Below are positions 40,579 through 53,149 of a stretch of 64,000 nucleotides of DNA, piece by piece. A model generated the notes under the pieces. It was not told the DNA's origin and ran no database searches. It saw only the letters and a list, made by a program, of their open reading frames with translations. The DNA comes from Pyxidicoccus trucidator (GTDB lineage Bacteria > Myxococcota > Myxococcia > Myxococcales > Myxococcaceae), in NCBI RefSeq assembly GCF_010894435.1, contig NZ_JAAIXZ010000001.1, positions 166,006-230,005 on the forward strand. Reading direction: 5' to 3'. The first letter of the stretch is position 1. The number at the start of each line of letters is the position of its first letter. The position numbers and the translations under genes were made by a program.

Positions 40579-40890
40579 ATGCAACCGGATACCAAGGAAC
40601 TGAAGGACGGCCTGAAGGCCATGATCGTGGACCGCCTGCGGCTGAGCATCGACCCCGCGAGCATCCCGGATGGGGCACCGCTGTTCGGTGGTGACTCGCG
40701 GGACGGTGAGGCGGGCGGCCTGGGACTCGACAGCGTCGAGGCGCTGGAGATCGTGGTCGGCATCGAGGAGAAGTGGGGCGTCATCATCGCGGACGACAGC
40801 GTCGCGAAGGAGTTCCACTCCATCAACACGCTCGCGGCGCTGGTCAGCCGGCTGATCTCCGAAGGCGGAAGGAAGGCCGCCGGTGCATAG
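40579..40890 (+). CDS. Acyl carrier protein (type II)
   Basis: 103 residues. The ATG at 40579 has AAGGAGA upstream. GLGLDSVEALEIVVGIEEKW is the phosphopantetheine attachment motif, with Ser52. The loop before it (DGAPLFGGDSRDGEAGG) is longer than in FabC-type ACP. It is the first gene of the operon and carries the growing chain for all enzymes that follow. Its stop overlaps the dehydratase GTG start by eight bases. Confidence 0.92.
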   Translation: MQPDTKELKDGLKAMIVDRLRLSIDPASIPDGAPLFGGDSRDGEAGGLGLDSVEALEIVVGIEEKWGVIIADDSVAKEFHSINTLAALVSRLISEGGRKAAGA

Positions 40891-41365
40891 CGCGCAGGCA
40901 GAAGAGCCATCCAGCCTTGGCATCCAGGAGATCCTCAAGCTCCTGCCGCATCGCTATCCGATGCTCATGGTCGACCGGATCGACGGCCTGGAGCCCGGCG
41001 TGTTCGCCGAGGGCATCAAGTGCGTCACGGCGAACGAGCCCTTCTTCCAGGGGCACTTTCCCGAGCACCCCATCATGCCGGGCGTATTGATTGTCGAGTC
41101 CATGGCCCAGGTGGCCGGCGTCATGCTGCGCACCCGGAGCTTGTTTGGGATTGAGTCCGACGGGCAGACAGCCGCGAAGCCAGCCCGCCCGGGGGTGATG
41201 GCAACCATCCAGCGGATGCGCTTCCGCCGCCCGGTGGTCCCCGGAGACCAGCTCCGCGTTCGGGCCACGCACCTCAAGAGTCTCGGCACCGTCCATCACG
41301 TGAAGGTCGAAGCACGGGTGGGCGAAGAGCTCGTCGCTGACGGCGAACTGATGCTTGGCGCCTAG
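40883..41365 (+). CDS. 3-hydroxyacyl-ACP dehydratase, FabZ-like (catalytically intact)
   Basis: 160 residues, GTG start overlapping the ACP stop. Hot-dog fold with ILKLLPHRYPMLMVDRI and the FabZ active-site helix FFQGHFPEHPIMPGVL, where His58 and Glu72 (VESMAQ) form the catalytic dyad. It should remove water from 3-hydroxyacyl-ACP to give trans-2-enoyl-ACP. A second hot-dog gene in the operon (44521) lacks this dyad, so the two may form a heterodimer. No enoyl reductase is encoded in the operon, so double bonds would be kept. Confidence 0.93.
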   Translation: MHSAQAEEPSSLGIQEILKLLPHRYPMLMVDRIDGLEPGVFAEGIKCVTANEPFFQGHFPEHPIMPGVLIVESMAQVAGVMLRTRSLFGIESDGQTAAKPARPGVMATIQRMRFRRPVVPGDQLRVRATHLKSLGTVHHVKVEARVGEELVADGELMLGA

Positions 41366-41385
41366 TCGCAAGGAACCTCATCACC

Positions 41386-42156
41386 ATGCGTTTGAATGTG
41401 CTCATCCAGGGCAGTGGATTTCCGCGGCTGCGCTCCACGGTCACCCTCGTGCAATCCCAGAAGCGGAACATCCTGGTGGATAGCGGTCTGTGCGACGACG
41501 CGGACCGGCTGGTGCTGGCACTCAAGGAACGTGGACTGACTCCGGATGACGTGGACGTGGTCGTCGCCACCCACCTGCATTACGACCACTGCGGCAACCA
41601 CCTGATGTTTCGGAATGCGCGATACATCGTGGGAGCCAAGGACTTCATCGAGAACGCCCATTTCATCAGGGCCTATCACCAGGACCGTACCCCCGGGAAG
41701 ACCGCCACCTCGGAGCTGCTGCTCGAGAACTACCAGACGGTGAAGCCCTTCTACGTCCGGTCCATCGTGCGGGAGGTGACTCGAAACATCGAGTTCTACA
41801 ACCGGGTGCTCGAGCGCGACGCACGCTTCGTCCCCGTCGACGGCAGCCATTGGCTCACCGAAGAGGTCGAGGTGCTCCCCACCCCGGGACATACCCATGG
41901 CCATATCTCCGTCGTCGCGCACCGCGCCCAGACAGGGAGCGAGGACGCGCCGAGGAAGATACTCGTCGCGGGAGATGCACTCTTCACCCGCAAGACGTTG
42001 CTGGAGAATGCCGAGCGGGAGCTCCAGCTCGCGCAGGACGTCGAGCTCTATAGCCATACACGCAAGAAGCTCTTGAGCGAGTACCGCCACATCATTCCAG
42101 GCCATGACGGCCTGGTGGACACCGCATCGCCTGAGCCCATGGAGGTCACCTCGTGA
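41386..42156 (+). CDS. Metallo-beta-lactamase-fold hydrolase (lactonase/thioesterase-like)
   Basis: 256 residues. The di-metal site has HLHYDH (His63, His65, Asp67, His68), PTPGHTHGH, AGDALF and IIPGHDG, the layout of the AiiA-type lactonase/glyoxalase II branch. In a chain-building operon the most economical role is hydrolysis of the thioester or lactone to release the product. A quorum-quenching-type lactonase is the alternative. It ends in a GTGA overlap with the first ketosynthase, so it is made together with the synthase. Confidence 0.88.
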   Translation: MRLNVLIQGSGFPRLRSTVTLVQSQKRNILVDSGLCDDADRLVLALKERGLTPDDVDVVVATHLHYDHCGNHLMFRNARYIVGAKDFIENAHFIRAYHQDRTPGKTATSELLLENYQTVKPFYVRSIVREVTRNIEFYNRVLERDARFVPVDGSHWLTEEVEVLPTPGHTHGHISVVAHRAQTGSEDAPRKILVAGDALFTRKTLLENAERELQLAQDVELYSHTRKKLLSEYRHIIPGHDGLVDTASPEPMEVTS

Positions 42157-51052: not shown

Positions 51053-51071
51053 CAGCGCGGGAGACATCACC

Positions 51072-51812
51072 ATGAAGAACGCACTCTTTCTCATCGCGGG
51101 GATGCTGTTGCTCACGGGCTCCGCGCGGGCCGCCGCACCGGATGCGGCGGAGATTCTCAAGTCCTCGGACCGCGCTCGCGGTGGCGGGCTTCCCGGCATC
51201 CGCTGGACAGTCCGCATCCAACCCGTCAACGGTGTGGACTCGGAGCCCGAGCGGCTGCTCACCCTGAAGGCCAATGCCACCGCCAGCCTCGCGGAGACGC
51301 GTGAGCCCGTGCGCTTCAAGGGCTCCAAGCTGCTGCAGGTGGACCGGAACATGTGGATGAGCCGGCCGGGGCTCCGCAAGCCGATTCCCATCTCGCCGCG
51401 GCAGAAGCTGTCGGGGCAGGCCTCGCAGGGCGACATCGCTTCAACGAACTACGCCGTCGACTACCAGGGCAAGCTGCTCCGCGAAGAGGAGGTCAATGGC
51501 GAAGCCAGCTATGTGTTGGAATTGACGGCCGTCAACAAGTTCTGCACCTATGACCGCATCACCTACTGGGTCTCCAAGCAGCGGCTGGTGGGGGTGAAGG
51601 CAGACTTCTTCTCCCTCTCCGGGAAGCTGCTGAAGTCCGCCACCTTCGAGTACGGCAACCAGCTCACCCACGAAGGAAAGACGATTCCCTTCGTGAGCAA
51701 GATGACCATCCAGGACGCGCTCACGCCCGCCAGGACGACGCTGGTGTACTCCGATATCCAGGTGACGGAGCTGGCCCGGGCGGAGTTCGACGTCAACCGG
51801 CTTGGGAACTGA
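51072..51812 (+). CDS. LolA-like outer-membrane lipoprotein-sorting protein
   Basis: 246 residues. MKNALFLIAGMLLLTGSARA is a Sec signal peptide without lipobox. The mature part is beta-rich with MWMSRPGLRKPIPISPRQKL, YVLELTAVN, and WVSKQRLVGVKADFFSLSGKLLKSATF. This is the pattern of the TP_0789-like/LolA-like family, which carries acyl groups in a half-barrel. It probably ferries the lipid product across the periplasm between the FtsX-type transporter and the outer membrane. Confidence 0.87.
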   Translation: MKNALFLIAGMLLLTGSARAAAPDAAEILKSSDRARGGGLPGIRWTVRIQPVNGVDSEPERLLTLKANATASLAETREPVRFKGSKLLQVDRNMWMSRPGLRKPIPISPRQKLSGQASQGDIASTNYAVDYQGKLLREEEVNGEASYVLELTAVNKFCTYDRITYWVSKQRLVGVKADFFSLSGKLLKSATFEYGNQLTHEGKTIPFVSKMTIQDALTPARTTLVYSDIQVTELARAEFDVNRLGN

Positions 51813-51817
51813 GCGGG

Positions 51818-53149
51818 ATGAGCGCGAGACGAATCACAGTCGCCGCCACCCCGGGCCTGCCGCTGCTCGCGGGCCTGCTGGTGGCGGGGATTGGCGCGAC
51901 TGTCGAGGCCAGCGTCCTCGAGGAGCTACAGGAGAAGGGCTCCGCCAGCCTCCAGGTGCTGGCCTACGACAGCGAGCGAGGGCTGCGGGAGAACAGCCTG
52001 CTCAATCCAGGCAACCTCATCGCCCGGCTTCCGGAAGGACAGACGGAGGTGGAGGGGCGGCTCGACTTGAAGCTCACCACGGACACCTTCGTGCTGAGCT
52101 TGAAGCCCCGGGCCCGCTTCGAGTGGCGGCGCTTCGGAGGCGCGGGCCCGGAGACACGGCTCGACGCCTGGGTGAACCAGGGGTCCGTGACGGCCTATCC
52201 GGTCCAGGAGCTCGCCGTGTCGGTGGGCAGGGACGTCCTCACCTGGGGGCCTTCCAACTTCCGCTCGCCCAGCAATCCCATCTACTTCGAGAACGGCCGG
52301 AACAACCCACTCCGCGAGCTGCTCGGGGTGGACGTGGCCCAGGTGGCCTGGTCGCCCACGCCCGCGCTGTCCCTGTCGCTGATGCACCAATTCGGCGACG
52401 GGCGCGGGGACTGGCAGTGGGAGAGGGATGAGGGCTTCAAGGCGCTGTCGCTGCTGAAGGTGGACTACACGGCGGATGTCTACGTCGCGAGCCTGAACGC
52501 CTCGAAGCAGTGGACCGATGAGCGTCCCCGCTTCGGCGCGTTCGGGCAGGCCACCGTCAGCGAGGCACTGCTCGTCTACGCGGAGGCGGGGCTGCGTCAG
52601 GGGACCTCCGCGCTGTACCCGGAGAGGCTGCCGACACCGCTGGGGGGCGGCTTCCTGCCCCGCCATACCGGAGACAACCCGCTCTTCTATTCCGCCCTCG
52701 TCGGGGGCGGCTACACGCTGGACTCAGGCCACACCGTCTATCTGGAGTACCTGAGCAACAATGAGGGCTACCGGTGGGCGGACGGGGTGCGGTACTTCGA
52801 CATCGCCGCCAGTGCTTCCGCGACGCTGGCTACCCCCTCTTCCGACTCGCCGCTCGCGGGCCAGACGTTGGGAGCCGCGCTCAACAATGGGCTCGCGCTG
52901 CAAGGGCGCCACTATCTGTTCCTGCAAGTGCAGAACAACCAGACGGACAGCGGGCCCATGTGGCAGCTCCGCTATTCACTCAATCTGGTGGACGGCAGCG
53001 GGCAGGGGTCCGCCTATGTCGAATGGAATGTCTTGAGCCGCCTGGCGCTCTTCGCGGTGGGTGTCATCAATCACGGGACGAATCGCTCCGAGTTCCACTC
53101 ATTGCTGAGCCGGTCGATTCTCGTGGGGGCCAAGGGCTACGTCCTGTAG
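51818..53149 (+). CDS. Outer-membrane beta-barrel-like protein
   Basis: 443 residues with a signal-type N-terminus (LPLLAGLLVAGIGATVEA) and alternating beta strands with girdle aromatics. SVGRDVLTWGPSNFRSPSNP and AQVAWSPTPALSLSLMHQ recall DUF1302-like or Wzi-like barrel proteins. The C-terminal strands end RSILVGAKGYVL. It is the last gene of the operon. Together with the ATPase, permease and LolA-like protein it completes an inner- to outer-membrane route. The exact barrel family is uncertain. Confidence 0.75.
   Translation: MSARRITVAATPGLPLLAGLLVAGIGATVEASVLEELQEKGSASLQVLAYDSERGLRENSLLNPGNLIARLPEGQTEVEGRLDLKLTTDTFVLSLKPRARFEWRRFGGAGPETRLDAWVNQGSVTAYPVQELAVSVGRDVLTWGPSNFRSPSNPIYFENGRNNPLRELLGVDVAQVAWSPTPALSLSLMHQFGDGRGDWQWERDEGFKALSLLKVDYTADVYVASLNASKQWTDERPRFGAFGQATVSEALLVYAEAGLRQGTSALYPERLPTPLGGGFLPRHTGDNPLFYSALVGGGYTLDSGHTVYLEYLSNNEGYRWADGVRYFDIAASASATLATPSSDSPLAGQTLGAALNNGLALQGRHYLFLQVQNNQTDSGPMWQLRYSLNLVDGSGQGSAYVEWNVLSRLALFAVGVINHGTNRSEFHSLLSRSILVGAKGYVL

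What the first reader, a model, noticed from the sequence alone, without database searches (positions are those of the whole stretch)
40579..53149. A 14-gene type II chain-building and lipid-export operon with every core activity in an active/dead pair
Seen directly: genes overlap by 4-8 bases (ATGA or GTGA) over most of the operon. They encode ACP, two ketosynthase/CLF-like pairs, intact plus dyad-less dehydratase, Tyr/Lys-less plus intact ketoreductase, and a metal hydrolase, then ATPase, FtsX permease, LolA-like protein and OM barrel. No enoyl reductase, malonyl transferase or AMP-ligase is encoded. Known: aryl-polyene and highly reducing type II PKS systems use KS-CLF and DH heterodimers and retain double bonds. 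Inference: the operon makes a polyunsaturated acyl lipid and delivers it to the outer membrane. I know of no described system with this exact set, and the paired-dead-enzyme logic extending to the ketoreductase looks new.
Basis: partly seen in the sequence, partly recalled or inferred. Interest (0 to 1): 0.88.

Follow-up and report, generated by a model that had tools for sequence, protein, structure and literature searches.

The report
Lipid-making operon with paired dead enzymes
A 14-gene operon in Myxococcus-type soil bacteria encodes each core chain-building enzyme alongside a sister protein that lacks the catalytic residues, including a ketoreductase-like family also found in Acidobacteriota; it is predicted to make a polyene-like lipid and likely hands it to the outer membrane.

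Summary
Window 40579-53149 carries 14 same-strand genes: ACP, dehydratase, metallo-hydrolase, KS, CLF-like, dead dehydratase, dead ketoreductase, ketoreductase, KS, CLF-like, ABC ATPase, FtsX permease, LolA-like protein and a probable outer-membrane protein. Catalytic residues are intact in KS1, KS2, DH1, KRb and missing in CLF1, CLF2, DH2, KRa in every copy checked (window plus 9 or 10 genomes, fixed order). The unit occurs in 11 of 195 Myxococcota genomes. The dead ketoreductase forms its own family of 31 protein clusters, some named Acidobacteriota; its FabG catalytic and NADPH sites are lost, its fold is kept, and dN/dS is below 0.4 in five genome pairs. The closest kind is highly reducing type II PKS. 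It is not an aryl-polyene cluster: AMP ligase, second ACP and RND exporter are absent. An export cassette of the same order, 31-58% identical, follows a type I PKS in a relative, which supports lipid export. Live/dead pairing is known for KS-CLF and APE dehydratases; for the ketoreductase it appears new in type II PKS, with precedents elsewhere (BbsCD, human heterotetrameric ketoacyl reductase). Product, pairing and export are inferred; the barrel is unproven.

The parts
40579..40890 (+). ACP, LGLDS phosphopantetheine site
   Evidence: PF00550; best NCBIfam model PRK09184 at 34.6 bits, cut-off 70; motif in 10 of 10 copies
40883..41365 (+). DH1, intact FabZ-type dehydratase (His + Glu)
   Evidence: TIGR01750 160 bits, over cut-off 155; dyad in 10 of 10 copies
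41386..42156 (+). MBL-fold metallo-hydrolase, metal ligands intact (HLHYDH, TPGH, GDA, PGHD); predicted thioesterase/lactonase
   Evidence: PF00753; motifs in 11 of 11 copies
42153..43358 (+). KS1, intact ketosynthase
   Evidence: PF00109/PF02801; Cys and His-Lys-His in 11 of 11
43355..44524 (+). CLF1, KS-like without Cys/His/His; 334-341 aa in 6 of 11 copies, 389-395 in 5
44521..44964 (+). DH2, FabZ-like without the catalytic dyad (Phe, Asp)
   Evidence: PF07977; 11 of 11
44957..45706 (+). KRa, ketoreductase-like without Ser/Tyr/Lys and without the full NADPH motif
   Evidence: PF13561; 11 of 11; family of 31 clusters; fold retained
45703..46476 (+). KRb, intact FabG-type ketoreductase
   Evidence: Ser/Tyr/Lys and glycine motif in 11 of 11
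46539..47774 (+). KS2, intact ketosynthase
   Evidence: PRK07314 408 bits, cut-off 387; 11 of 11
47857..49062 (+). CLF2, KS-like without Cys/His/His (start may be 47818)
   Evidence: 11 of 11; family of 64 listed clusters, own one and a few fragments included
49080..49829 (+). ABC ATPase, LolD/MacB-like
   Evidence: PF00005; LolD model 239.5 bits, below its cut-off 307.75
49826..51052 (+). FtsX-type permease, LolC/E-like, four TM-like segments (1+3)
   Evidence: PF02687, PF12704, TIGR02212 74.8 bits, below cut-off 362.45
51072..51812 (+). periplasmic LolA-like carrier
   Evidence: PF17131 6e-34; PDB 3buu 5.6e-29
51818..53149 (+). protein of unknown family with an N-terminal signal-like segment, probable outer-membrane protein
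   Evidence: hydrophobic segment 8-26; no known family; distant homologues in other cassettes; barrel not shown
40532..40555 (+). conserved promoter-like element: GATGTCAGA - N9 - TACGTT upstream of ACP
   Evidence: ATGTCAGA in 10 of 10 aligned upstream regions (preceded by G in 9), TACGTT in 9 of 10; ATGTCAGA-N8..12-TACGTT hits the own genome once

Best explanation
The operon encodes a highly reducing type II polyketide-synthase-like machine in which both ketosynthases, the dehydratase and the ketoreductase each have a sister protein lacking the catalytic residues; it likely builds a polyene acyl chain on its own ACP, which is predicted to be released by the metallo-hydrolase and passed by the ABC-FtsX-LolA-like cassette towards the outer membrane. 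Shown: gene set, residue states, conservation, purifying selection, and the recurrence of the cassette behind another PKS. Inferred: malonyl-ACP comes from the housekeeping FabD; KS1-CLF1 and KS2-CLF2 each form a pair (KS1 perhaps priming, KS2 elongating); KRb-KRa and DH1-DH2 form hetero-oligomers in which the dead subunit supplies interface, ACP docking or chain binding; without an enoyl reductase the double bonds stay; export is by a Lol-like relay.
Against: No product, expression or interaction data. An enoyl reductase could act in trans. The operon has no acyltransferase to anchor a chain to a lipid, unlike APE. The barrel could not be shown. A related cassette also occurs with no ketosynthase match in its 19.9-kb stretch (L080). 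The DH2-KRa fusion is one sequence, and a one-base sequencing error could produce it. Equal contig lengths are indirect evidence of linkage.
Confidence: 0.6

Rival explanations
1. The same machine makes a saturated or only partly unsaturated acyl chain, because a housekeeping enoyl reductase acts in trans.
For: Malonyl transfer must already come from outside the operon, where a FabD is present, so borrowing is normal; KS2 scores just over the PRK07314 FabF-type subfamily cut-off.
Against: Type II systems with KS-CLF, KR and DH but no ER step are described as making polyenes (PMC10698177 introduction; PMC8358021 first part). The 14 genes leave no room for another gene between them in any of the 11 copies.
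Confidence: 0.2
2. The dead homologues are relics or regulators that do not join the live enzymes.
For: CLF1 is shortened in 6 of 11 copies and, with DH2 and KRa, is among the less conserved proteins.
Against: Purifying selection of the same order as for live KS1, presence in every copy, retained fold and non-catalytic columns in KRa, KRa-CLF2 linkage on contigs outside the named Myxococcota.
Confidence: 0.12
3. KRa has a new activity of its own, for example on the ACP-bound chain without NADPH, rather than being a partner subunit.
For: Family-specific near-invariant residues that FabGs rarely have, such as P28, E133 and G155.
Against: Always directly before an intact KR in the 11 copies; most columns kept are shared with FabGs and not catalytic.
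Confidence: 0.1
4. The ABC-FtsX-LolA-OMP cassette sorts lipoproteins and is only a neighbour of the synthase.
For: Best NCBIfam models are LolD and LolCE; a related cassette stands without a ketosynthase in L080.
Against: Both models miss their cut-offs; the cassette follows a type I PKS in G126 and stands beside other biosynthetic genes in G017 and G137.
Confidence: 0.12

Closest known systems
Highly reducing type II PKS (ishigamide, mbg and ysf clusters)
   Same: KS-CLF pairs, KR and DH, no ER step (PMC10698177 introduction); several KS-CLF pairs in one cluster are known (mbg 4, ysf 3; PMC13311259, section 16 read; that mbg and ysf are of the reducing kind is recalled)
   Different: Here a dead KR partner and a dead DH partner are also encoded, plus a Lol-like export cassette; Gram-negative host
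Aryl polyene (APE) clusters
   Same: KS-CLF, a second KS, a DH pair whose partner ApeP has Phe in place of His as DH2 does, Lol-like export parts (PMC8253772, PMC8041823, passages)
   Different: No AMP ligase, one ACP not two, no RND exporter or DUF3261 LolB-like protein; APE has one KR; KS1 and KS2 miss the cut-offs of the NCBIfam models that ApeR and ApeO pass
Cispentacin/coronafacic acid type II PKS-like clusters
   Same: ACP, DH1 and KSs give hits to AmcB, AmcE and AmcF models
   Different: All below cut-off; no matching AmcH-type gene among the 14
Hetero-oligomeric SDRs: BbsCD and human heterotetrameric ketoacyl reductase
   Same: Two different SDR subunits in one enzyme; BbsC and BbsD chains are sequence matches of KRa, the human heterotetramer a fold match
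   Different: Not part of a type II PKS; details of their subunit roles are recalled apart from the BbsCD title
LolCDE-LolA lipoprotein sorting
   Same: ATPase, LolC/E-like permease and LolA-like carrier
   Different: One permease gene, no LolB-like gene found; curated Lol cut-offs missed

Membership tests
Highly reducing type II PKS | KS with active Cys paired with a KS-like CLF lacking it | tested here: met
   two such gene pairs (by sequence; complex not tested)
Highly reducing type II PKS | discrete KR and DH, no ER in the cluster | tested here: met
Highly reducing type II PKS | polyene product | not testable with these tools
   no chemistry available
Aryl polyene cluster | AMP ligase/acyl-ACP synthetase for the aryl starter | tested here: not met
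   none of 14 genes; annotated in the CFT073 control
Aryl polyene cluster | ketosynthases over the NCBIfam cut-offs that E. coli ApeR and ApeO pass (PRK09116 470, PRK09185 407) | tested here: not met
   KS1 272 and 247, KS2 269 and 281 bits; ApeR 779, ApeO 556 in the control
Aryl polyene cluster | two ACPs and an RND/MMPL exporter | tested here: not met
   one ACP, ABC-FtsX exporter; both present in the control
Cispentacin-type cluster | AmcF-type KS (NF058662 cut-off 325) | tested here: not met
   KS1 242, KS2 250 bits
Lol lipoprotein sorting system | LolD and LolC/E over curated cut-offs | tested here: not met
   239.5 of 307.75 and 74.8 of 362.45 bits
Hetero-oligomeric SDR with pseudo-subunit | adjacent SDR genes, one intact, one without catalytic and cofactor residues | tested here: met
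Hetero-oligomeric SDR with pseudo-subunit | the two proteins form one complex | not testable with these tools
   needs co-expression or a complex prediction

The most novel reading that the evidence does not exclude
This is an all-asymmetric type II synthase: every core step (condensation twice, ketoreduction, dehydration) is run by an obligate live/dead hetero-oligomer, and KRa founds a class of pseudo-ketoreductase subunits, a 'ketoreductase factor' comparable to the chain length factor, spread between Myxococcota and Acidobacteriota.
Probability: 0.45. Interest if true: 0.78.

Novelty: new variant of a known kind. Interest (0 to 1): 0.62.

Why it matters
Live/dead pairing recurs in type II synthases, but the best-known case, KS-CLF, is tied to chain length. 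A system where the ketoreductase too carries a conserved pseudo-subunit lets one test what the dead halves do in general: docking, channelling or chain measuring. It also marks an uncharted lipid pathway in predatory soil bacteria and Acidobacteriota, with an export cassette that different PKS types seem to share.

Tried and rejected
Aryl polyene membership: rejected on cut-offs and missing genes. Cispentacin membership: rejected on cut-offs. KRa as an enoyl reductase: Pfam names its SDR domain that way, but Tyr and Lys are gone. Plasmid carriage of KRa: no match at E 1e-30 in 72,556 plasmid records. Viral contigs: 79 pattern matches, none a relative of CLF2. OMP fold: failed, pLDDT 28 with 11 close sequences; Pfam at E 10 gave nothing for 11 of 11 members; strand-periodicity z 1.2, less than DH1 and DH2 at 1.6. 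The KS tree (30 rows) places KS1 with E. coli ApeR (94/92), KS2 weakly with ApeO (83/75) and the two CLF families together (95/94), but long branches meet, so I do not build on it; holding KS1 and KS2 together is not rejected (p 0.126). In the first tree (33 rows) two rows (L011, L016) were wrong-strand open frames by my extraction; they and the short ApeC row were dropped. PDB 9s5h, the best KS1 match, could not be tied to a paper. The place of the lost Lys in KRa depends on the alignment: Lys stands in 4 of 31 rows at that column, in 0 of 29 (which leaves out the fused P0083 and the fragment P0095); Gly18 is kept in 2 of 31 rows. One search lists only columns kept in 80% or more or in 20% or less of the family; those between were not printed. 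Cassette neighbours: one search scanned 10 of the 28 frames called in L098 and L099; L100 was not scanned. Acidobacterial gene neighbourhoods could not be read; linkage there rests on equal contig lengths only. Novelty rests on ten searches of an open-access library, which lacks most subscription papers; of the papers named here I saw passages or single sections, not whole texts.
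Full report
WHAT IS THERE. The window lies in a genome of 12.7 Mb whose named near relatives are Pyxidicoccus, Myxococcus, Hyalangium and Corallococcus. From 40579 to 53149 it holds 14 genes on the + strand, 7 of 13 junctions overlapping by 4 or 8 bases, the others with gaps of 5 to 62 if CLF2 starts at 47818. 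Pfam and NCBIfam give ACP, FabZ-type dehydratase, MBL-fold hydrolase, four ketosynthase-like proteins, a second FabZ-like protein, two SDR ketoreductase-like proteins, an ABC ATPase, an FtsX permease and a LolA-like protein. The last protein matches no family.

RESIDUES. Aligned with E. coli FabF, FabG and FabZ, KS1 and KS2 keep Cys, both His and Lys; DH1 keeps His and Glu; KRb keeps Ser, Tyr, Lys and the glycine motif. CLF1 (Cys to Trp or His, His to Cys or Gly, His to Glu), CLF2 (Cys to Asn, His to Ala, His to Glu), DH2 (His to Phe, Glu to Asp) and KRa (Ser to Asp, Tyr to Val in that alignment, Lys gone, Asn86 to Ala, glycines 16 and 18 to Pro and Ala) do not. This holds in all copies checked: window plus 10 genomes for eight proteins, window plus 9 for DH1 and ACP. 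The hydrolase keeps its metal-ligand motifs in 11 of 11.

CONSERVATION. A CLF1 match at E below 1e-120 is in 10 of 27 genomes of the genus, counting the own one; CLF2 at E up to 1e-90 marks 11 of 195 genomes of the phylum, the eleventh being Hyalangium versicolor (names: also Pyxidicoccus fallax, Myxococcus sp. CA023 and a record labelled Comamonas sp. KCTC 72670). Order and orientation are the same in all 11; one copy is cut at a contig end before the ACP. Flanks differ: those of the window gave no blastn match in the other 10 copies except 91-105 bases just upstream of the ACP in two of them, while six copies (L038-L043) match one another in at least one flank, and L035 and L037 share one 1-kb match. 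So the 14 genes behave as one unit that stands in several different places. A promoter-like element, GATGTCAGA-N9-TACGTT, lies at 40532-40555 (ATGTCAGA in 10 of 10 copies, TACGTT in 9 of 10) and occurs once in the genome. dN/dS by a Nei-Gojobori count in five pairs (four for ACP and DH1) is 0.19-0.41 for CLF1, 0.17-0.42 for DH2, 0.09-0.38 for KRa, 0.10-0.18 for CLF2, 0.13-0.35 for live KS1 and 0.06-0.10 for live KS2: the dead genes are constrained about as much as KS1 and less than KS2.

EXPORT CASSETTE. ABC and FtsX are nearest to LolD and LolCE models but miss the cut-offs; the carrier is PF17131 and resembles PDB 3buu. FtsX relatives at E up to 1e-50 occur in 15 of 195 genomes: 11 are this operon. 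In G126, another genus of the family, ABC-FtsX-LolA-OMP in the same order (57, 42, 43, 31% identity) starts 34 bases after the open frames of a type I PKS (KS, DH, KR; then ACP, KS and a serine-palmitoyltransferase/BioF-type domain) and is followed by a FabD-PfaD protein. In G017 the cassette lies beside an MFS protein and a protein with carrier and thioesterase domains; in G137 near AMP-binding proteins, a reductase, a dehydroquinate-synthase II and an aspartokinase-type protein (10 of 28 frames scanned); G139 has the same layout by gene size but was not scanned. Against this, L080 (G060) has a related cassette with no ketosynthase match in its 19.9 kb. On balance the cassette looks like a module that serves biosynthetic pathways.

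HOW IT LIKELY WORKS. Inference from here on. Housekeeping FabD loads malonyl on the operon ACP. KS1-CLF1 and KS2-CLF2 condense; the CLFs shape the tunnel, as in KS-CLF in general (PMC12664062, passages). KRb reduces, with KRa as a structural partner; DH1 dehydrates with DH2, as ApeI-ApeP are described to do with a single active site (PMC8041823, passages). ApeP too has Phe for His. No enoyl reductase means a conjugated chain. The hydrolase releases it, and the cassette moves it outward. KS1 near ApeR and KS2 near ApeO in the tree would fit priming and elongation, but support is modest and branches are long.

KNOWN AND NEW. KS-CLF pairs, several pairs in one cluster (PMC13311259, section 16 read), DH pairs (PMC8041823, passages) and a proposed Lol-like export of polyenes (PMC8253772, passages) are all in print. 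A catalogue of type II PKS clusters notes an unexplored, mainly non-actinobacterial CLF clade (PMC10132072, passages), so CLFs of this kind may already be listed there without study. What I did not find in ten searches is a type II PKS with a conserved inactive ketoreductase partner. Outside PKS it has parallels: BbsCD, whose paper title speaks of inactive pseudoenzyme subunits (reference list seen), and the human heterotetrameric ketoacyl reductase (entry titles; subunit roles recalled). I therefore call it a new variant of a known kind.

Noticed in passing
L044 (G000:C9:172000-191500), 3962-13367: A second, different type II PKS-like cluster in the same genome: KR, KS and CLF-like by tblastn, with an AMP ligase, cyclase-like parts and a possible PPTase by eye.
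   Followed up: partly
L079 and L082 (G126): Type I PKS with a serine-palmitoyltransferase/BioF-type domain and a FabD-PfaD protein around a related export cassette; may make a sphingoid-like lipid.
   Followed up: partly
L099, L100 (G137, G139): A related cassette near aspartokinase-type, dehydroquinate-synthase II, AMP-binding and reductase genes (L099 only scanned), perhaps an aminohydroxybenzoate-type pathway.
   Followed up: partly
window 39545-40394, - strand: Upstream of the operon, two overlapping frames look by eye like a broken serine hydrolase gene; Pfam found nothing in frame 39738-40394, the other was not scanned.
   Followed up: no
window 54848-60985, + strand: A 2045-residue open frame that looks by eye like a tandem hybrid histidine kinase.
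   Followed up: no
L047 (BNCN01000012.1): The record is titled Comamonas sp. but carries the operon, and its contig has the same length as contig C12 of G025, a genome of the window's genus; the label looks wrong.
   Followed up: partly
CLF1 in L038-L043: CLF1 is 334-341 residues long in six copies against 389-395 in the other five, by loss of several internal stretches; KS1 stays full length.
   Followed up: partly
L035, 3384-3530: A second small piece of the OMP gene (profile positions 395-443) lies beyond the operon end in Pyxidicoccus fallax.
   Followed up: no
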